From Janthinobacterium sp. LM6 (GTDB lineage: Bacteria > Pseudomonadota > Gammaproteobacteria > Burkholderiales > Burkholderiaceae_D), in assembly GCF_002002885.1 (NCBI RefSeq), contig NZ_CP019510.1:1674001-1738000 (forward strand): 64,000 nucleotides of DNA. Reading direction: 5' to 3'. Positions within the stretch are counted from its first letter, which is position 1. Every line of letters begins with the position of its first letter. The translations under genes were made by a program, and so were the position numbers. A model generated the notes under the pieces. That model ran no database searches. It had not been told where the DNA came from and saw only the letters and a program-made list of their open reading frames with translations. Positions 40,307 through 48,440 of the stretch are shown one piece after another.

Positions 40307-40715
40307 GGCTGCTCGGGTCACCTTTGCGTATGATTTCAGCGGGCATAAAGGTGCAAGTTTCTAGACTTGGTAAAGGTGGCATATTTATTAATTTTATTCG
40401 CGTCAATCTGATGCTTGGCCATGGCTGGTTTTAAGTCTTTGGGAGCGAGGGGCAGTTCCGCCATTCGGAAATGACCTGCGCATTGAATGTCACGTAAATA
40501 AATTTGCCATCTAGGCTGAACGCATATATCCTAATAGTGCGCTTAATTGCGTGCGTGTGCGTGCTACGTTGCCAGGAAGCTGTCCCCCGGTTAAAAAGCC
40601 AAAAAGGACATTATTTGTTCCTTTCGCATTCTCCAAATCCTTGTTGTTAGGCTTGATCATTGTTGCCTGAGGCAGCACGGCTCACTACGCCGTGGCATTA
40701 TCTTTGGAGAAGTGC
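40307..40715. other. Intergenic region upstream of the 612-residue unknown gene
   Basis: This 409-nt stretch is AT-richer than its surroundings and holds no convincing gene. It includes the first of two imperfect direct repeats (40445-40482) that flank the downstream gene. The promoter of that gene should also lie here. Confidence 0.5.
40445..40482. repeat. Direct repeat, left copy, flanking the 612-residue gene
   Basis: It shares GCGAGGGGCAGTTCC and then a diverged continuation (CCATT.GGA... to CTG.GCA) with 42626-42663. The copies are about 2.2 kb apart in the same orientation. Confidence 0.6.
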
Positions 40716-42554
40716 ATGAATACCGAAAATCTGTTGCGTGCAATGCGTAAGGTTTATCTTCTTACCCCGAAGCCTGGCCTGTCGGCATCTGAGGACGAAA
40801 TGTTCTGGTCCATGTGCCTTAACGGACTGCATGAGGAAGATATCAGAAAGTCCGTAACTTCCCTCCGTCAAGATCGGGAGATGCGTGGCGTTGCCGTTTC
40901 AAAATCGAAAAGCCTCAAAGTCACCGACCTGCAAAAGGCGCTTGCCGTCACGCTTGGTGCACGGTCCTACGATCACTGGTGCAAAACCGAACAGCCCCGA
41001 ATTCTTGGCTTTCTTGCCGAAAATGGCATGAATCAACCCGCTGACCTGATCAAGTGGCCTTGTCTGCCGGGATTTACGAAAACCCTGACCGCACATCGCC
41101 TGGCCGACCGTTTTTTTAACTCGGGCTTGCCGCTTCCAAAACGCTTGTTCACTGGTGTCGGATCGCTGTTGTTTGCGGCATCTGGTTATGGCCGCCTGGA
41201 TATCCATGAACTGGCAGGCAAGAATATGTACGCGGATGAGGAACGACTCGAATATTGCGAGCTTTATGCAAATGAAGTGGTATTGCGTGCTAACGATATG
41301 CGAACTCAATGGCCGAATGCCCCTGAATTCGTTGATTTGACAGGGCGGATGCTGCTGCTGAATGCGGTATCTGAATTTGTCGGCGGTATGTACAACTTGC
41401 TTGGCGATAACCTGATGGCGCCAATGCTGGAAGCCACAGTTTTTACCGCTTATAACGTAAGCGAGAAAGAAGCAGCATTTGACCGCAAGCTATTCCAGAT
41501 TTTTCGGGCAGAAATAGAACGCAGCGAAGATGGCTGGGTCGATGTTATTCCTCTACCTGGAAACGACAACATCATATTCCTGAGGGGAGCCGATGGTAAA
41601 TTTGACTGGGTCATCAGGAATCAAAGGGATACACCGTTCATTGAGAATTTTCTTTTCCCCGTATTTAACTCGAATGAACTGCCATCTGCATTGCTAAATT
41701 CGAAATTGGCGGCCCATCTTTACTTCAGGCAGGGAGAGTGGCAGGATCGTCTCATGCACGATGCTGAACAGCGTCATTACGCCGAAGGCGGTTCGGTTGC
41801 GACTTGGCCCGGGTACGACAAATTGCTTGCGCGTGAGTTGATGGCAGAAAGAGGATATATTCCCTCGCGCCAGCTGGATGCTCAGCAAACAAAGGGATTT
41901 TTACCGCACCGTATCAGGAACCGGTGCCTGATGATCTCGCCTCTGATCACAGTCGACGAGTTCTGGAAATTCTATGAGAACAGCGAATGGCGCCAGATCC
42001 GTTCGGAGAGGTTGAGAAAGATAAAACTTACCATTGAAGAGGATTTGGCAGCAGTTAATCTCCATGATCATGGCAATCTTCCAGTCAGTGTTACATGGTT
42101 TGATGCGATTGCTTATTGCCGTTATGTCGAGGATAAAACAGGACTTCCGGTGCGTTTGCTTGAGATTGATGAATGGCAACAGATTTGTCCGAATCCTGCA
42201 CGGGATTTGGAAAAGGACGGTTGGGGTGATCTGACATGGGGGCTGACCGGTGGAGATGGCTTAACTGGAGGGGGGTATTTCGAGGCGTGCCCCGAGGGCG
42301 GTTCGCTACGCTTTGGCAAGGAGCTGGCCTGGTCGTTGAATCGCGAAGGTCTGCAATTTTTGTCCGTGGTTGACTTTGGCGAGTGGCTTGCTGATTACGG
42401 TTTGGGACATGCCCCAGCTGCAAATGCTGCCACTGGGAGAGCCCTGATGACAGGTCCACTCGAGCGTGACAAGTGTCCGGCACATCTCACGATGCGCTAC
42501 AAAGGCTTAAAAGTTGGCTTCCGCATCTGTTACGTCGCCCAACTTGACGCTTAA
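40716..42554 (+). CDS. Unknown protein (612 residues) with a possible divergent FGE-sulfatase-like C-terminal region
   Basis: The N-terminal ~80 residues include a helical SLKVTDLQKALAVTLGARSY unit like those found at the start of some plasmid- and mobile-element-borne proteins. The middle is unrecognised. From about residue 430, LMISPLITVDEFWKFYENSE, NLPVSVTWFDAIAYCRYVED, LPVRLLEIDEWQQI and a final GLKVGFRICYV resemble the order of elements in formylglycine-generating-enzyme/sulfatase-modifying folds; Cys residues of true FGE are not aligned. GGAG precedes the ATG. GC content is lower than the flanking core genes, suggesting acquisition. Confidence 0.65.
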   Translation: MNTENLLRAMRKVYLLTPKPGLSASEDEMFWSMCLNGLHEEDIRKSVTSLRQDREMRGVAVSKSKSLKVTDLQKALAVTLGARSYDHWCKTEQPRILGFLAENGMNQPADLIKWPCLPGFTKTLTAHRLADRFFNSGLPLPKRLFTGVGSLLFAASGYGRLDIHELAGKNMYADEERLEYCELYANEVVLRANDMRTQWPNAPEFVDLTGRMLLLNAVSEFVGGMYNLLGDNLMAPMLEATVFTAYNVSEKEAAFDRKLFQIFRAEIERSEDGWVDVIPLPGNDNIIFLRGADGKFDWVIRNQRDTPFIENFLFPVFNSNELPSALLNSKLAAHLYFRQGEWQDRLMHDAEQRHYAEGGSVATWPGYDKLLARELMAERGYIPSRQLDAQQTKGFLPHRIRNRCLMISPLITVDEFWKFYENSEWRQIRSERLRKIKLTIEEDLAAVNLHDHGNLPVSVTWFDAIAYCRYVEDKTGLPVRLLEIDEWQQICPNPARDLEKDGWGDLTWGLTGGDGLTGGGYFEACPEGGSLRFGKELAWSLNREGLQFLSVVDFGEWLADYGLGHAPAANAATGRALMTGPLERDKCPAHLTMRYKGLKVGFRICYVAQLDA

Positions 42555-42625
42555 CCTCACTTCGGATGGCGCATATGAAACAACGCCAGAAGGAAGAGAT
42601 TTTTTGCGTCCGTAATTGGAGGGGG

Positions 42626-42663
42626 GCGAGGGGCAGTTCCTCCATTTGGATACGGCCTGAGCA
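42626..42663. repeat. Direct repeat, right copy, flanking the 612-residue gene
   Basis: It matches 40445-40482 exactly over GCGAGGGGCAGTTCC and partly thereafter, in the same orientation. Confidence 0.6.
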
Positions 42664-42723
42664 GTGAGTGTTGTCGTTAGGGAAGCCGCCTGCGGCGCAA
42701 AACCTGGCCAGAAGAATCGGAGG

Positions 42724-42841: not shown

Positions 42842-42893
42842 AATAAATAAAAAGGGCCTCCCCGCTAAAACGGGGAGGCCCTTTTTATTTATT
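42842..42893. terminator. Strong bidirectional terminator, probably the original ssrA terminator
   Basis: The stem AAAAAGGGCCTCCCCG with its complement around CTAAAA, flanked by A and T runs, is a canonical rho-independent terminator on both strands. It directly abuts the distal copy of the ssrA 3' end at 42891-42921, so before the island inserted it would have followed ssrA. Confidence 0.85.
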
Positions 42894-42921
42894 CAGTGGT
42901 GGAGATGGCAGAAATCGAACC
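42891..42921. repeat. Distal att site: partial copy of the ssrA 3' end
   Basis: This 31-bp sequence matches 47285-47315 with three differences, all transitions within the GGAGATGGCAGAAATCG part. It is the outer boundary of the ssrA-integrated island. The decay of the distal copy suggests an old insertion. Confidence 0.85.
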
Positions 42922-43175: not shown

Positions 43176-43886
43176 ATGCATGTAAAGTCACAGGACGACC
43201 TCATGGGCGATGTCATCAAGGTTTTTGGCGAGATTGAACCTTCTTTGCCAGCGGTCTTTAACGGGTTAGGAAAGGGGCCAGTCACGCAGCAGACCATGCG
43301 CTTCTATACTGCTTTTGAAGATATGATCACTCGGTCAAATAGTCCAATAAGCTGTAAGTCCGGCTGTACCTACTGTTGTCATTATCATGTAATGGTCTCA
43401 GCCACTGAGACATTTGCGATTGCCGAGGCTATAGAAAAGCTGCCACAGGCCAGGCGTGATGTTGTCATAGGTCGTGTTCACAATGTCGCAGCACGTACAC
43501 GAGAGATGACGTCTGAAGTCTACACGACCACAAATGTGGAATGTGCGATGCTGCTAGACGGAAAATGTTCGATTTATGCCGCGCGACCTATAGCTTGTCG
43601 CGGCCATCACTCAACCGACGTTAGCGCATGTAAAGAGACGTTTGATGATGTACATTCGACGACGCTTGGGATGAAGGACTATCATCGCGAGGTGGTGTAC
43701 AGAGCTTTTGACAATGCACAGCTGGCTGCAAACCTCCGAGCTAACGTTGACGCGACGAAATACGAGTTGCATGCTGCGCTGTCGACGGCCCTGAATAAAT
43801 CGTCTTCTTTTAAGCGTTGGAAAAGCGGAAAGTCGGCATTTCCCGAAGTCGCTGATAAGGTAACGCTAGCCGAAATGGGAGGCTGA
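43176..43886 (+). CDS. YkgJ family cysteine cluster protein
   Basis: The 236-residue protein has the YkgJ signature: ISCKSGCTYCCHYHVMVS supplies the CxxGCxxCC cluster near residue 60, ECAMLLDGKCSIYAARPIAC supplies further Cys ligands, and CRGHHSTDVSAC follows. These Cys residues bind zinc or an Fe-S centre; the biological role of the family is unknown. It is the first gene inside the island at its distal end, AT-richer than the core genome, and preceded by an AT-rich leader. Confidence 0.88.
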   Translation: MHVKSQDDLMGDVIKVFGEIEPSLPAVFNGLGKGPVTQQTMRFYTAFEDMITRSNSPISCKSGCTYCCHYHVMVSATETFAIAEAIEKLPQARRDVVIGRVHNVAARTREMTSEVYTTTNVECAMLLDGKCSIYAARPIACRGHHSTDVSACKETFDDVHSTTLGMKDYHREVVYRAFDNAQLAANLRANVDATKYELHAALSTALNKSSSFKRWKSGKSAFPEVADKVTLAEMGG

Positions 43887-43959: not shown

Positions 43960-44285
43960 TTATGAGTCTGAGTCAGAAATAATGCCGAAGATGTTTTCTG
44001 CTTTGGCGCCAGCGTCTAAGTTGGCGTTAGGCATCCAACGCCCATATACCCTGGCAATCATTGTCCAGTCAGCATGCCCCATCTGTTTTGCCACCCACAT
44101 AGGGTGTTCACCGGCCGAGAGCATCATGCTTGCGTAGGTGTGCCGCGTCTGATAAGGGTCGCGATACCGCACGCTAGCGTTTTGCAGAATGCCGGTCCAT
44201 AGTGTCTTGCGAATCGGCTGGTCACCCTCCCAACGCCGCACCAGACGCGGATTTTGAAAGACTTCTTCGCCCTTCGCCCAGGTGA
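43960..44285 (-). pseudogene. Tyrosine integrase, 3' fragment (about 105 residues)
   Basis: The translated fragment includes DPYQTRHTYASMMLSAGEHP with the R-H-x-x motif, VAKQMGHADWTMIARVYGRW with the late His and the nucleophile Tyr, and a PNPRL-like block before these. It is the catalytic C-terminus of a phage/island tyrosine recombinase. The N-terminal two thirds are missing: the frame runs into a phage portal fragment on the opposite strand near 44285. The enzyme cannot work, so the island can no longer excise by itself. The 3' end is intact with its own stop. Confidence 0.88.
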
Positions 44286-44529
44286 ATACCTTTTGCTCGT
44301 GCAGCGCGACGACCAGCTGGCCGCGCACCGCGTGCCGCCCCAGCTCATGGGCATCCTGCCGAACAATGCCGGCGGCTTCGGCGCCGTGGAAGCTGCCGCG
44401 CGCGTCTTCGCCCGTAACGAGCTGGTGCCGCTGCAGGCGCAGTTCGAAGCGATCAACGAGTGGGCCGGCGTGGAAGTGGTGCGCTTCGTCCCGTATGACC
44501 TGGCCACGGGCGGGGAGGGCGCGGCATGA
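44286..44529 (+). pseudogene. Phage portal protein, 3' fragment (about 80 residues)
   Basis: The fragment reads LLLVQRDDQLAAHRVPPQLM, then GILPNNAGGFGAVEAAARVF and ARNELVPLQAQFEAINEW, which is the C-terminus of PBSX/P2-type phage portal proteins. The portal ring forms the DNA entry vertex of a phage head. The first three quarters are absent, and the fragment begins at the junction with the opposed integrase fragment. The stop overlaps the next ORF's ATG (ATGA), as in the original phage. Confidence 0.85.
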
Positions 44530-44741
44530 GCGATCACATCGACAACACGGGCAAGATCATCTTCGCCGAGGTGGCGCGTGGCCTGGCTGCCGTGCGCGGC
44601 CGGCCTGCCCTGGTGGCGCATGGCTGCTGCCACTACTGCGACGAGCCACTGGCGCCCGCGCTGCTGTTCTGCAATGCGGACTGCCGCGACGACTACGACA
44701 AGGAGCTGGCGGCCAAGGCGCGCGCTGGCCGCGCAGGATGA
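44526..44741 (+). CDS. Phage-type small zinc-finger protein (71 residues)
   Basis: The protein has a treble-clef-like cluster, CCHYCDEPLAPALLFCNADC, followed by an acidic/basic helix. Short proteins of this type occur in phage structural regions, but the function is unknown. Its ATG overlaps the portal fragment's stop. A terminator follows at 44815, suggesting the end of the old phage transcript. Confidence 0.7.
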   Translation: MSDHIDNTGKIIFAEVARGLAAVRGRPALVAHGCCHYCDEPLAPALLFCNADCRDDYDKELAAKARAGRAG

Positions 44742-45132
44742 CCGCTACACCGTGATAGCCGGCAGGGCGGGGCCGCGACAGCGCAGCCGCGCCAGAACGC
44801 CACAGCCACCGCACAAGCCGCCCACGGGGCGGCTTTTTCATGTCCCGGCAAATGACGTTGCTCTTGGAGCAAGAAAAAGGCCCATTTCGGCCCGGCGCGC
44901 GCAGTTGTCCCCCCTCCACACCTGCTCGCTATATAGGGCTCTTTTGACTCAAATGTGCGCCATGGCCGAAGGCGCATGAGGACTGGGGCGGCAGGGCGAA
45001 GAAGGGGCGTGCGATTTGACGCATTTTGACGTACTTTGAAGTGGTTCTTGCATCGAGTTATACCGGTAGCGGATTGCTATTTAATGATTTATTGGCAATC
45101 CTCTTGTGAGTATTTTTAGTTAGATAGAATTT
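44742..45132. other. Gene-free stretch within the island
   Basis: This 391-nt stretch holds a terminator at 44815-44838 and then AT-rich sequence leading to the 3' end of the sce7725-like gene. No convincing ORF was seen. Confidence 0.5.
44815..44838 (+). terminator. Rho-independent terminator after the phage remnant
   Basis: AAGCCGCCC (44815-44823) and GGGCGGCTT (44827-44835) form a perfect stem with a 3-nt loop followed by a T run. Confidence 0.85.
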
Positions 45133-46092
45133 TTATATTCCGGCCAGTAGTAGGTCATGAATGCGAGCAATGTGATGTAATACTTGGCGTTCTTTATTCT
45201 TTCCTAGCCCCGGAAAGTGATCACTTGCATGATCATTGAGATATTCCTGAATTGCCGGATTATGCCCTATTTCAATTGGGTGTTTGAGGTAAGTATTTTT
45301 AAATTTTTCCAATGCTTCCAAATACTTTCCTTCAACCGTACCCAAGTCTCGGTCGGTCTCGTCGGAAATGAAATGGTAAACCCATATTTCGTCCTTTTTG
45401 AGATCTCGATATGTAATATGCATTGCTACAGCACCAGGGCGGCCACCACCTACATTGAAAGGTTCGCCGATGACTGTGTAATCGCCAAAGCCTACTCCAT
45501 GCTCTCTGAAGGTCTTATGACTGTCTGAAAATAGCTCTGTGCTGCCATAATCTGCGTTTCGAAGCTGCTTGTTGAAGCCGTCAACGACATGAACCAGTTT
45601 AGTAGGGGGCAGTATTTTTAGATGGGAATCCGAGATTTTTTTCTGCAGTACGATATGGTAAGCAATATTTTTTATTGCCATTAGGGAAATATTGTCTGCT
45701 TGTGGTAGGGCGCAATTGCGATAAAGCAATGCTATTCCACGTCCCTCATACTTTGCCGCGTATTTTTCAACAGCGCTGAGTTTGGGAGATCTAGCTCCGC
45801 TATGCAGTAAAACACCTGGAATTAGCGAGCTATACTTTTCAAAGCACGTCTTTAACGTCTCTCTCCAGTCATCCGGAACCTTATCCTTAAAGTCACCCTG
45901 AGTAGGGTTTGCAATGACTATTGCGGTCTTATTTTCCTTACCTATGATCTCAAGGCAACGAATAAGATCACCTGAGTTACTATTTACTGGTTCTATAATT
46001 GGAACCACTAGCTCTGGGTCCAGATATTTGCTGTTTGCGCTACGCAACGCAAGTAATTCATGTCTACGGCCATAAACATACGGAAAATACAT
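45133..46092 (-). CDS. sce7725-like (beta protein family) component
   Basis: The 319-residue protein begins MYFPYVYGRRHELLALRSAN, followed by PELVVPIIEPVNSNSGDLIR. This opening is typical of the beta protein family (sce7725-type); I know it by this and by its partner. The middle contains FGDYTVIGEPFNVGGGRPGA, and the C-terminus ends in HHIARIHDLLL. There is no signal peptide or membrane helix. AGGAG lies 8 nt before the ATG. It follows the nuclease-like partner gene by 71 nt on the same strand. GC is far below the core genome. Its biochemical function is not known to me. Confidence 0.8.
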   Translation of the reverse strand: MYFPYVYGRRHELLALRSANSKYLDPELVVPIIEPVNSNSGDLIRCLEIIGKENKTAIVIANPTQGDFKDKVPDDWRETLKTCFEKYSSLIPGVLLHSGARSPKLSAVEKYAAKYEGRGIALLYRNCALPQADNISLMAIKNIAYHIVLQKKISDSHLKILPPTKLVHVVDGFNKQLRNADYGSTELFSDSHKTFREHGVGFGDYTVIGEPFNVGGGRPGAVAMHITYRDLKKDEIWVYHFISDETDRDLGTVEGKYLEALEKFKNTYLKHPIEIGHNPAIQEYLNDHASDHFPGLGKNKERQVLHHIARIHDLLLAGI

Positions 46093-46163
46093 GACGGCAA
46101 CTCCTAAAGGAAGAGAGAACAAACCATATATACATACGGCCGAACCTCCTCATTGAGAGTCTG

Positions 46164-47033
46164 TTACGTCCCCAACGGACAGGAAAGTAAATCAGTCAGC
46201 GTTCCCCGTTGACGGTTTGAGAGAGGGGTCGCATAGCCGAGCGCTCGCAAAGAAGGCGGCAATAACGAAATAAAGTCTACCGTACTTTTATCTGTAGTGC
46301 GAGCGCGAAGTGCTTTCACAAAGACTCGATGGGCTTCTTCTGGAGATAAATTAAGAAAAAGTTTTTCACAATAGGCGGCAATGACACCGTTTGGTAATGT
46401 TGGCGATTCGCCGAACAATTCCTTTGTGGCGCTTAAGTACTCGGCTCGCCTCAAACACCTGAACACCGCACGTGGCTCGACATTTTCGATGTTTGAACGT
46501 GCCTCTCTAAGAGGGGAGAGTGCGTGTTTAGGACTTAAAACAATTAGACCAACCTTCGGATCAAGCTCTCGCTCGTAGCGTTCAACATGATTTGGATGGG
46601 TGACGACGTACACCTTATCAAAGACTCGTAAATAGTCCGCAGTTTGGCTTTTGAGACGTTTGCTACTATCGAATTCAGTTTTAATTTCATACGCAGTACT
46701 GGTGCCATTCGCAATAGCAACATCAACGATTGAACTTCCCACGCCAAGTTCTACTTGAAAACTCGCTGTGCGAGGGCTGTGTCGCTTGAATACTAGGCGA
46801 GTCGCCAGCTCATTTTTGTACACATACTCATTGCGATACCCTGCTGCCAAGATTTCCCAGCCATCTTCAAAGGCCGATGCAAGGGTTGCTGGCCTAAGGG
46901 GATTTTTAGAAATTAAGGCATGCTTTGCAAGAATATCTAATACTGGATGAGGGTTCCCAGTTCGTGCCAAATTCGCGAAGACTGGCCGCGTGAATACTTT
47001 TGCTAGCATGCGAAGGTCTTGCGTTGTTGTCAT
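46164..47033 (-). CDS. sce7726-like protein with a PD-(D/E)XK nuclease core
   Basis: The 289-residue protein contains SIVDVAIANGTSTAYEIKTE, giving Asp104, then Glu116-x-Lys118 of a PD-(D/E)XK nuclease fold, with an upstream Glu at about residue 75 in YKNELATRL. The following DKVYVVTHPNHVERYERELD and KVGLIVLSPK strands fit the same fold. This is the sce7726 pattern, which typically adjoins sce7725. It probably cuts or binds nucleic acid. The ATG at 47033 lacks a clear ribosome-binding site; the frame is open further upstream. It is the first gene of the unit, low in GC, in an ssrA-integrated island. Confidence 0.82.
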   Translation of the reverse strand: MTTTQDLRMLAKVFTRPVFANLARTGNPHPVLDILAKHALISKNPLRPATLASAFEDGWEILAAGYRNEYVYKNELATRLVFKRHSPRTASFQVELGVGSSIVDVAIANGTSTAYEIKTEFDSSKRLKSQTADYLRVFDKVYVVTHPNHVERYERELDPKVGLIVLSPKHALSPLREARSNIENVEPRAVFRCLRRAEYLSATKELFGESPTLPNGVIAAYCEKLFLNLSPEEAHRVFVKALRARTTDKSTVDFISLLPPSLRALGYATPLSNRQRGTLTDLLSCPLGT

Positions 47034-47189
47034 TTGGTGAGTATTGATGTGTCGTTTATGGCGCAGTAGCAGCACATTTTCACCCTGTAGACAGGGGATT
47101 GAATGTTGAAATTCTAGCAAATATAAGGTTGCTTTGCGATAAATAAATGATCGGAAGCATTAGTCAGACGATGGTGTTCTTCAACAAAA

Positions 47190-47257
47190 AAGGCTGTCAT
47201 TTTGTTGTCATTCCTAGGCTAAAACAGCCCAAAAACAACCCAAATAATGACAGCCTT
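47190..47257. terminator. Hairpin immediately inside the island, downstream of ssrA
   Basis: AAGGCTGTCATT (47190-47201) pairs with AATGACAGCCTT (47246-47257) around a 44-nt centre. On the minus strand, T runs follow the stem (complement of 47185-47189), so it may now terminate ssrA transcription in place of the displaced terminator. It could also be a leader structure of the low-GC pair. Confidence 0.6.
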
Positions 47258-47284
47258 CTTCTTGCTAACTACTTGATTCTAAAC

Positions 47285-47315
47285 AATTCAGTGGTGGAGA
47301 CGGCGGGAATCGAAC
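47285..47315. repeat. Proximal att site: ssrA 3' end
   Basis: This is the intact 3' end of tmRNA (acceptor stem and T-loop region) plus the six bases beyond it. It is repeated with three changes at 42891-42921. It restores a full ssrA gene after integration. Confidence 0.88.
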
Positions 47316-47652
47316 CCGCGTCCGCAAGCACTCCACAGACAGTTCTACATACTTAGCACTATCATTTAATTTAACTCAGCCAGCACGGATGTGCACGTTA
47401 TGGGCAAGCGAGTTACCTATTATTTAGTCGGACGCTAAGTAACCCAGCATACGACGAGTCCCTGTAAATGACTCTAGAGCTTTTGACGGCCCACCCCAGG
47501 GACGAGGTGTTCTAGAGCTAACAGCGATTAAGCTGCCAGTGCGTACGAGTTATCGTTTGCAGTTAAGTTTTTTCAGGTTGTATTTACGAGGTAGCCCGCC
47601 CTCGGTATGCCCTGCGCTGCTTTGCAACCCACGTCGAAACCAGGTCGTCCCC
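47291..47652 (-). ncRNA. ssrA: Transfer-messenger RNA (tmRNA)
   Basis: The 362-nt gene starts GGGGACGACCTGG and ends with TTCGATTCCCGCC...ACCA; its ends pair as a 7-bp acceptor stem. The tag-coding segment lies at 47528-47560. With SmpB it rescues stalled ribosomes and tags nascent proteins for degradation. Its 3' end is the integration site of the adjoining island. The original terminator is now about 4.4 kb away, at 42842-42893. Confidence 0.96.
47528..47560 (-). other. tmRNA tag open reading frame
   Basis: The resume codon GCA begins the tag ANDNSYALAA, followed by TAA. The final LAA is the proteolysis degron. ANDNSYALAA fits betaproteobacterial tags. Confidence 0.95.
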
Positions 47653-47735
47653 ACAGAACCTTCATTGTAGCGCAATCTGACCACTCTTGCATGGCGCATT
47701 CGCTTGCTGGTGTGCCAGATCAAGCGCAGGCCGAT

Positions 47736-48440
47736 TTATGCCGCCAATTGCCGGGCCTGCGCCGCCTTCACCACCGCGCTGACCAGCTCGAGCAGCGCAT
47801 GCGGGGTATCCAGCAGGTGGTCGGCGTTCCAGTGCTGCGGTTCGACGGGGCCGCAGTAGCCCCAGGCGCAGGCCACCGTGCGCATGCCGGCGGCGCGGCC
47901 GGCCTGGATGTCGCGCAGGTCGTCGCCCACGTACCAGCAGTCTTGCGGCGCCAGGTCCAGGCGGCGCGCCGCTTCCAGCAGGGGGGCGGGGTGCGGCTTC
48001 GGATGCGCCATGGTGTCGCCCGAGACCACGCAGCCGGCGGCACCGAGGCCGATCTGGCCGACCAGCGGGTCGGTGAAGCGGGCGGCCTTGTTGGTGACCA
48101 CGCCCCAGGCCAGGCCCAGCGCTTGCAGGCCTTCCAGCAGGGCGGGGATGCCGTCGAACAGGCGGCTTTCCACGGCCAGGGCCGCTTCGTAATTGTTCAG
48201 GAATCCGTCTTTCAGGGCTTCGTAGCCGCTTTCGCCGGGGCCGATGCCGTAGGACGCGACTATCATGCCGCGCGCGCCGGCCGAGGCCGTGGGGCGCAGG
48301 ACGTCATACGGGGTCGGCGCCAGGCCGGCGCGCGCGCGCAGCAGGTTGATGGCCGCCGCTAGGTCGGGCGCGGTGTCGGCCAGGGTGCCGTCGAGGTCGA
48401 ACAGGATGGCGCGCGGGGCTGGCAGATGGTCAGTGATCAT
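47736..48440 (-). CDS. gph: Phosphoglycolate phosphatase (HAD superfamily)
   Basis: The 234-residue protein has the HAD motifs: ILFDLDGTLADTAPD (motif I with the nucleophile Asp), VVTNKAARF (motif II region), a Lys in MAHPKPHPAPLLEAA, and YVGDDLRDIQAGRAAG (motif IV). It dephosphorylates 2-phosphoglycolate formed in DNA repair and oxygen metabolism. The ATG at 48440 is preferred to a TTG nine bases upstream. It is downstream of ubiG on the same strand, with a 68-nt gap, a common Burkholderiales arrangement. Confidence 0.93.
   Translation of the reverse strand: MITDHLPAPRAILFDLDGTLADTAPDLAAAINLLRARAGLAPTPYDVLRPTASAGARGMIVASYGIGPGESGYEALKDGFLNNYEAALAVESRLFDGIPALLEGLQALGLAWGVVTNKAARFTDPLVGQIGLGAAGCVVSGDTMAHPKPHPAPLLEAARRLDLAPQDCWYVGDDLRDIQAGRAAGMRTVACAWGYCGPVEPQHWNADHLLDTPHALLELVSAVVKAAQARQLAA

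What the first reader, a model, noticed from the sequence alone, without database searches (positions are those of the whole stretch)
45133..47033. Low-GC sce7726/sce7725-like two-gene unit with a nuclease core in an ssrA-integrated island
Seen: two adjacent minus-strand genes with GC far below the core genome. The first has a PD-(D/E)XK-like core (Asp104, Glu116-x-Lys118); the second opens like the beta protein/sce7725 family. They lie alone in a genomic island. Known, from memory: sce7725 and sce7726 are named families that tend to occur side by side, without an agreed function. Inference: a nuclease-like protein with a conserved partner in a degraded island suggests a defence or conflict system that was kept while the phage genes decayed.
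Basis: partly seen in the sequence, partly recalled or inferred. Interest (0 to 1): 0.85.

Follow-up and report, generated by a model that had tools for sequence, protein, structure and literature searches.

The report
Likely prophage-borne phage-defence gene pair
Two neighbouring genes in a nearly deleted prophage encode a predicted DNA-cutting enzyme and a barrel-shaped partner protein; they resemble parts of known virus-defence systems but lack the toxin gene that usually accompanies them, so they probably form a simpler, untested way for a resident virus to block other viruses.

Summary
Two minus-strand genes (46164-47033, 45133-46092) are sce7726 and sce7725 family members at 47% and 43% GC, in a window of 61% GC. 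AlphaFold2 and alignments support a PD-(D/E)XK core with the named residues (D104, E116, K118) and a divergent TIM barrel.

First, sce7726 is the cII family of phage P4's gop-beta-cII defence system, and sce7725 is a remote homologue of beta, a family that also supplies PD-lambda-2's third part. Second, sce7726-sce7725 is usually followed by a RES-domain (NAD+-degrading toxin) gene: 71 of 79 assessable loci among the 80 closest genome matches. Third, the window lies in a supported clade without RES; both genes are under purifying selection there. A relative in an E. coli satellite-like element occurs in 420 of 5,426 complete genomes.

The island is a P2-like prophage remnant at ssrA. The pair fills a variable cargo slot beside the portal gene, the side of a known defence hotspot in E. 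coli P2-like phages. I read it as a two-gene, nuclease-based phage-exclusion module. That activity is inferred, not shown.

The parts
46164..47033 (-). sce7726 family gene (cII-like), 289 aa; N-terminal helices, PD-(D/E)XK core about 69-176 (E69, D104, E116, K118, Q130, Y134), helical C-terminal domain
   Evidence: NF033832 E=5.7e-52; PADLOC cll E=1.2e-17 over residues 103-179 only; AF2 pLDDT 94.2; Foldseek 3dnx, then weakly NucS/EndoMS, Can2, SduA
45133..46092 (-). sce7725 family gene (remote Beta homologue), 319 aa, divergent TIM barrel; N62, D204, H225, H240, S243, K300, H306, H307 invariant in 48 sequences
   Evidence: NF033831 E=6.4e-72; AF2 pLDDT 94.8; Foldseek TIM barrels; hhalign to Beta family E=1.9e-6
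45050..47185 (.). Cargo slot: stretch that does not align with the ssrA prophages of two same-genus genomes, which carry about 2.8 kb of other DNA there
   Evidence: blastn of window against G123 and G267 prophages
44526..44741 (+). DksA-like zinc-finger gene of the P2-like prophage
   Evidence: phrog_54 E=1.6e-8; 86-87% identical in G123/G267 prophages
44254..44529 (+). C-terminal remnant of the P2-like portal gene (gpQ type); homologous from about 44304
   Evidence: phrog_68 E=2.1e-24, profile positions 272-340 of 344; 89-95% identical to the ends of portals in G267/G123
43960..44328 (-). C-terminal remnant of the prophage tyrosine integrase, abutting the portal remnant: internal deletion scar near 44303
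   Evidence: phrog_1 E=9.5e-16; 86-88% identical to integrase ends of G123/G267 prophages
43176..43886 (+). CxxCxxCC-domain protein gene inside the island, not found in the two related prophages
   Evidence: PF03692 E=8.9e-6, above cut-off; no tblastn match at E 1e-4
47286..47316 (.). attL-like repeat: 3' end of ssrA
   Evidence: identical 25-mer at both ends of the G123 and G267 prophages
42891..42921 (.). attR-like repeat, 90% of 31 nt
   Evidence: left flank and ssrA meet at one att copy in G1041 and G1045
47292..47652 (-). ssrA (tmRNA), insertion target, kept whole
   Evidence: ARAGORN

Best explanation
The pair is cargo of a P2-like prophage and acts as a two-gene phage-exclusion module. 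sce7726 is a metal-dependent PD-(D/E)XK nuclease and the likely effector. sce7725, a TIM-barrel protein of the extended Beta kind, holds it in check or responds to a signal from an incoming phage. When a rival phage infects, the nuclease is released or directed and damages DNA, stopping that phage. In most relatives a third gene, a RES-domain protein, adds NAD+ depletion; in P4 a small membrane toxin (Gop) takes that place; the window's clade does without either. Shown here by computation: both folds, invariant nuclease residues, homology to cII and beta, absence of RES in the clade, purifying selection without RES, and the prophage cargo position. Inferred: nuclease activity, the regulator role of sce7725, and phage exclusion.
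For: PD-(D/E)XK fold and invariant residues. P4 cII is a family member (E=6.2e-16). sce7725 to Beta E=1.9e-6 over nearly the full length, with two unrelated comparisons at E=0.65 and 0.77. gop-beta-cII protects against lambda and P1 (Rousset 2022, passages and section 8). [quoted passage not shown] The RES-less clade is supported (SH-aLRT 100, 13 rows, no RES in 12 assessable). dN/dS is 0.07-0.15 for both genes in the three pairs of three closely related RES-less genomes; window against the contig copy L129 has pS 0.85, pN 0.18 over 171 codons of sce7725. Position beside the portal gene fits the gpA-gpQ hotspot. Related pairs sit beside integrase, primase or terminase genes in viral contigs and an E. 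coli element.
Against: No phage or enzyme assay of this pair turned up in the papers searched. In gop-beta-cII and the RES operons a separate toxin gene is present, so the two-gene form may lack its effector. sce7726 homologues also occur without an annotated sce7725 in phages and plasmids, so the family may have a DNA-processing role unrelated to defence. The best fold match of sce7726 (3dnx) has no known function, and Foldseek E-values to nucleases are weak (0.11-0.70). Defence genes near relatives were found on 10 hand-picked proteins without a control. Massilia eurypsychrophila has a broken sce7726. No promoter-like site was found on the minus strand in 44900-47300. The gpA side of the hotspot is not preserved in the window, so only the gpQ side was checked.
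Confidence: 0.5

Rival explanations
1. The pair is the sensor/antitoxin half of a three-part toxin system whose effector gene (RES or Gop type) was lost. It no longer kills and survives because it neutralises toxins of related elements (anti-addiction) or interferes with rival systems.
For: 71 of 79 assessable genome loci keep RES. RES-less rows are not one clade (the tree needs 5 label changes, starred branches force 3); L104 sits inside the RES group. sce7725 diverges faster than sce7726 in 5 of 5 hand-chosen RES-less pairs (median ratio 1.36) against 5 of 18 RES-bearing pairs (median 0.92), Mann-Whitney p=0.010; not all pairs are strict sisters, and one further RES-bearing pair dropped out for a short sce7726. 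R7 and K301 of sce7725 are changed in the window clade.
Against: Both proteins keep their invariant residues and low dN/dS without RES. The clade spans Oxalobacteraceae, Lysobacteraceae, Halomonadaceae, an acidobacterial MAG and E. coli elements, so it looks old.
Confidence: 0.2
2. The pair serves the mobile element itself, for example DNA processing, anti-restriction or control of lysogeny, and is not a defence system.
For: sce7726-like sequences without sce7725 are found in many Bacillus, Enterococcus and Listeria phages: 225 phage records match sce7726 but only 3 match sce7725. The pair sits next to integrase in several elements.
Against: RES-bearing pairs also sit on plasmids and in an ICE-like region. 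The two related ssrA prophages have other DNA in the slot, so the pair is not a core phage gene.
Confidence: 0.18
3. A separate effector works in trans: an unlinked host gene replaces RES, with sce7726/sce7725 acting as its trigger.
For: The genome has one other RES gene, of another subfamily, at G000:C1:4020662.
Against: The Pfam RES search found only that one; a protein search with an operon-type RES found none, though without a positive control in the same call. The clade lives in distant hosts, so one shared unlinked effector is unlikely.
Confidence: 0.07

Closest known systems
gop-beta-cII of satellite phage P4 (Rousset 2022; PADLOC gop, beta, cll)
   Same: cII is annotated as an sce7726 family protein and aligns to the sce7726 profile; beta is a remote homologue of sce7725; phage/satellite cargo locus
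   Different: No gop gene here; sce7725 misses the PADLOC beta model; tandem order sce7726-sce7725 instead of beta and cII convergent
PD-lambda-2 (HigB-HigA/peptidase-C; Vassallo 2022)
   Same: Its C part belongs to the Beta family (P4 beta matches PD-Lambda-2_C models)
   Different: No HigB or HigA part here; no nuclease gene in PD-lambda-2 in the passages read
sce7726-sce7725-RES operons (annotated as family names only in the papers found)
   Same: Same two families in the same order
   Different: RES gene absent; sce7725 differs at positions that are invariant in the RES-bearing rows examined (R7, K301)
RES-Xre toxin-antitoxin modules (Skjerning 2019, seen only as a citation and in other papers' words)
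   Same: Shares the RES domain with the third gene of the relatives
   Different: Window pair has neither RES nor Xre

Membership tests
sce7726 family (NF033832) | Score above the curated cut-off of 70 bits | tested here: met
   176.3 bits
sce7725 family (NF033831) | Score above the curated cut-off of 60 bits | tested here: met
   242.9 bits
PD-(D/E)XK nuclease superfamily | alpha-beta-beta-beta-alpha-beta core with D, ExK and helix Q (motif layout recalled) | tested here: met
   AF2 elements H69-84, E91-98, E101-108, E112-118, H127-135, E140-145 carry D104, E116, K118, Q130; Foldseek to NucS/EndoMS, Can2 and SduA is weak
PD-(D/E)XK nuclease superfamily | Metal-dependent DNA or RNA cleavage | not testable with these tools
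   needs purified protein
gop-beta-cII | gop toxin gene adjacent | tested here: not met
   No further gene recognised in slot 45050-47185; no gop match among the six island-region proteins scanned
gop-beta-cII | Beta protein by the PADLOC model | tested here: not met
   0 PADLOC families for sce7725; only remote profile homology
gop-beta-cII | cII protein | tested here: met
   PADLOC cll E=1.2e-17, partial; hhalign E=6.2e-16
PD-lambda-2 | HigB-like and HigA-peptidase genes | tested here: not met
   no such match among the six proteins scanned
sce7726-sce7725-RES operon | RES-domain gene after sce7725 | tested here: not met
   tblastn of the RES set against the window at E 0.05: none
P2-like prophage cargo at the gpA-gpQ hotspot | Lies beside the portal gene in a variable slot | tested here: met
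P2-like prophage cargo at the gpA-gpQ hotspot | gpA (replication gene) on the other side | not tested
   ssrA lies on that side in the window and in G123/G267; gpA was not looked for
Anti-phage defence system | Measured protection from phage | not testable with these tools
   needs plaque assays

The most novel reading that the evidence does not exclude
sce7725/Beta barrels and sce7726/cII nucleases form one modular immunity core that has been joined to different toxins (a RES NAD+-degrading protein, the Gop membrane protein; Beta alone with HigBA) and that, in one prophage- and satellite-borne branch including this window and about 8% of complete E. coli genomes, works with no separate toxin, the nuclease itself being the effector.
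Probability: 0.35. Interest if true: 0.75.

Novelty: new variant of a known kind. Interest (0 to 1): 0.62.

Why it matters
It links two unnamed families to validated defence systems. It points to a three-gene operon with a predicted NAD+-degrading toxin, spread over many phyla, for which I found only annotations in print. It also identifies a toxin-less branch common enough in E. coli (420 of 5,426 complete genomes) to test directly. Comparing the three-gene and two-gene forms would show what the beta-like barrel does, which the P4 and PD-lambda-2 passages read leave open.

Tried and rejected
Pfam gave no family above cut-off for either window protein. Sequence searches of the PDB gave nothing usable: the low E-value of the sce7726 profile falls on the long protein CagY over its helical C-terminal part and looks compositional. 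A trans-acting RES effector was looked for. RES remnants near the window pair and in other RES-less loci were looked for; the only match was a 39-residue one in L018, E=0.024, far from its pair. I first took an L167 slot protein for an abortive-infection protein from memory; Pfam and PADLOC did not support it, so I dropped it. Enrichment of defence genes around the pair was not measured: one search used 10 hand-picked proteins (8 matched PADLOC, 2 did not) without a control. No antitoxin activity is claimed for sce7725, because PD-lambda-2C was reported as not needed for neutralisation.

Results against a simple story: RES-less pairs are not one clade. L115/L154, L155, L156, L158, L024 and L104 also lack RES, and the placement of long branches is unsure. 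Residues R7 and K301 mark the window's clade rather than RES absence in general: the RES-less L104 and L115 keep both, and L024 keeps R7. The association of RES-less pairs with viral contigs (8 of 11 distinct against 8 of 79 genome loci, Fisher p=2e-5) used counts that I entered by hand after collapsing look-alike contigs by eye (L132-L143 as one; L144-L152 and L159 as one). It leaves out L160-L164 (cut, broken or lacking sce7726; no RES found in them) and L041 (contig end), includes L129 whose sce7726 side is off the contig, and the genome loci were found with one pattern and kept by closeness to the window.

Full report
Observation. sce7725 is 45133-46092 (-), 319 aa; sce7726 is 46164-47033 (-), 289 aa. 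NCBIfam names both far above cut-off. GC is 42.6% and 47.1% against 61.4% for the window. The named residues D104, E116 and K118 are correct.

Structure. AlphaFold2 gave confident models of sce7726 (45-row alignment, pLDDT 94.2) and sce7725 (48 rows, pLDDT 94.8). sce7726 has helix 69-84, strands 91-98, 101-108 and 112-118, helix 127-135 and strand 140-145: the PD-(D/E)XK layout, with D104 in the second strand, E116-x-K118 in the third and Q130 in the helix (motif layout recalled). Foldseek ranks 3dnx (unknown function, E=0.004) first; NucS/EndoMS, Can2 and Shedu SduA follow among weak matches (E 0.11-0.70). D104, E116, K118 and Q130 are identical in 45 of 45 aligned rows and in P4 cII (19-row alignment). 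sce7725 is a divergent TIM barrel (best match N-acetylneuraminate lyase, E=9.7e-4, TM 0.40). N62, D204, H225, H240, S243, K300, H306 and H307 are invariant in 48 of 48 rows, which suggests a ligand or active site; its chemistry is unknown.

Known relatives. PADLOC calls sce7726 'cll' over residues 103-179. In the P4 record cII is annotated as an sce7726 family protein beside beta and gop, and cII aligns to the sce7726 profile at E=6.2e-16. sce7725 matches no PADLOC family, and no PADLOC family matched more than 1 of the 48 aligned sce7725 rows. Its profile does align to a Beta-family profile (8 sequences) at E=1.9e-6, probability 89.6, columns 2-307 of 317, while two unrelated comparisons gave 0.65 and 0.77. 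P4 beta also matches PD-Lambda-2_C (E=8e-14). Rousset et al. 2022 (PMC9122126; passages and section 8 read) report that gop-beta-cII protects against lambda and P1 and that gop is toxic without beta. Vassallo et al. 2022 (PMC9519451; passages read) report that PD-lambda-2C is required for defence but not for neutralisation. So the membership claim 'it is gop-beta-cII' fails (no gop, no beta by model), while the claim 'it works like part of it' stands.

The usual third gene. In an ICE-like region of Salmonella, a Moraxella plasmid and Shinella, Rhizobium and NT-25 plasmids the order is sce7726-sce7725-RES. Of 80 sce7725 loci kept from 429 in genome contigs (found with one peptide pattern, the best 80 by similarity to the window), sce7726 was detected in 79 and RES in 71; one locus without RES (L041) ends 172 bases after sce7725, so 71 of 79 are assessable positives. 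RES proteins match PF08808 in 22 of 22, and an N-terminal HEPN_RES_NTD1 domain in 16 of 22. E. coli has a close three-gene copy in 18 of 5,426 genomes; the 15 listed rows name all three genes. Genome samples: sce7725 in 9 of 294 family, 4 of 369 class and 4 of 398 phylum genomes, own genome included each time. RES follows in 2 of the 9 family loci, in 1 of 3 new class loci (one other lacks it, one has a truncated sce7725) and in 3 of 3 new phylum loci. In print I found the trio only as annotation: an IME in P. aeruginosa PA_HN002 lists RES, sce7725 and sce7726 proteins, and a Delftia island lists RES and sce7726 (passages). A search for sce7725/sce7726 found 5 papers; passages of all five were read. 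None proposes a function; one reports that an sce7725 protein group correlated with aminoglycoside resistance in E. coli. Of two searches pairing RES domain with phage-defence terms, one search found 114 papers and listed 25, one search listed 3 of 3; none of the titles or abstract beginnings seen describes this operon, and passages of three of these papers were read.

The window's branch. The window pair has no RES or RES remnant near it. The genome has one RES gene by the Pfam model, of another kind, elsewhere, and none by an operon-type query (no positive control). On an 81-row sce7725 tree its 10-row clade (SH-aLRT 99) has no RES in 9 of 9 assessable rows. With viral contigs added, the clade has 13 rows (SH-aLRT 100), no RES in 12 assessable. 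Members come from Oxalobacteraceae, Lysobacteraceae, Halomonadaceae, an acidobacterial MAG, viral contigs and an E. coli element. Both genes are under purifying selection there: the three pairs of three close genomes (L034, L035, L040) give dN/dS 0.07-0.12 (sce7726) and 0.09-0.15 (sce7725). The window's sce7725 against the 71%-identical part held in viral contig L129 gives pS 0.85 and pN 0.18 over 171 codons. sce7725 diverges faster than sce7726 in 5 of 5 hand-chosen RES-less pairs (median ratio 1.36) but in 5 of 18 RES-bearing pairs (median 0.92; p=0.010). Position 7 of sce7725 is R in 37 of 37 rows of the second block (36 with RES, plus L104 without) and Y or F in 10 of 11 of the first; position 301 is K in 37 of 37 and another residue in 10 of 11. 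The exception both times is L115, a RES-less row outside the clade. These are candidate RES-contact positions, but they mark the clade, not RES absence as such.

The island. Window 44298-45664 aligns at 78% with viral contig L129, through the sce7725 end, a DksA-like gene and the end of a portal gene; L129 continues with intact portal, terminase and scaffold genes (that this order is P2-like is recalled). Same-genus genomes G123 and G267 carry a 36-37 kb insertion at ssrA with portal, terminase and scaffold genes and the same 25-nt att at both ends. G1041 and G1045 show a single att copy where the flanks meet, an empty site. Window 44304-45049 and 47186-48000 align with the prophages or their flank, so the stretch between, 45050-47185, is a cargo slot that holds the pair and no other recognised gene; the other two prophages hold about 2.8 kb of different DNA. 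In the window the integrase end abuts the portal end near 44303, the scar of a large internal deletion. Rousset et al. place a defence hotspot of E. coli P2-like phages between gpA and gpQ; only the gpQ side could be checked here.

Other carriers. A RES-less pair lies between an ogr/Delta gene and the integrase of a roughly 10 kb element at a tRNA-Arg gene in E. coli S9 (L165). 438 of 5,426 complete genomes match that 3.3 kb stretch and 420 hold at least 80% of it; of 10 rows listed across the ranking, 9 name both genes and 1 (37% covered) only the integrase. Eleven IMG/VR contigs carry the pair at the same positions (L132-L142). Of 10 hand-picked proteins near pairs, 8 matched PADLOC families (ThsB-like, Drt2, type I methyltransferase, UG5-nitrilase RT, RmrA, PD-T4-10_B, PDC-S25, PDC-S21); there is no control, so this is a hint only.

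Mechanism. I commit to a two-gene exclusion module with the nuclease as effector and the barrel protein as control or sensor (0.5). The main rival is a toxin system that lost its toxin (0.2). All steps after fold, homology, position and selection are inference.

Noticed in passing
window 40343-42623: A low-GC stretch with a 620-aa ORF (40692-42554, weak FGE-sulfatase match below cut-off) is absent from G123, where the flanks lie a few bases apart; 50-nt direct repeats (82%) lie at 40441-40490 and 42622-42671, so it looks like a separate insertion next to attR.
   Followed up: partly
window 43176-43886: CxxCxxCC-domain gene between integrase remnant and attR, not found in the two related prophages: possible second cargo.
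   Followed up: no
L127 1093-3305: A gop-beta-cII system by PADLOC models (weak gop match, strong beta and cll matches) in another genome of the same family.
   Followed up: partly
L023 6258-12347: RES-less pair followed directly by a UG5 reverse transcriptase-nitrilase gene and a 377-aa protein without PADLOC match.
   Followed up: partly
L033 4881-6487: sce7726 gene convergent with a 354-aa P4-beta-like gene on a Pseudomonas putida plasmid, as in P4; Persicobacter, Sinorhizobium and Agrobacterium plasmids also have matches to both close together.
   Followed up: no
L166 4784-10869: In E. coli 300444 the RES operon lies near caspase-like, TIR and nucleotide-cyclase genes.
   Followed up: no
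L018 10219-11132: sce7726 of Massilia eurypsychrophila is split into two ORFs, a broken copy; in E. coli THO-015 an IS1 interrupts sce7725.
   Followed up: no
L005 8922-9989 and other RES genes of alignment A5: RES proteins of these operons carry an N-terminal domain that Pfam names HEPN_RES_NTD1 in 16 of 22, suggesting swaps with HEPN effectors.
   Followed up: no
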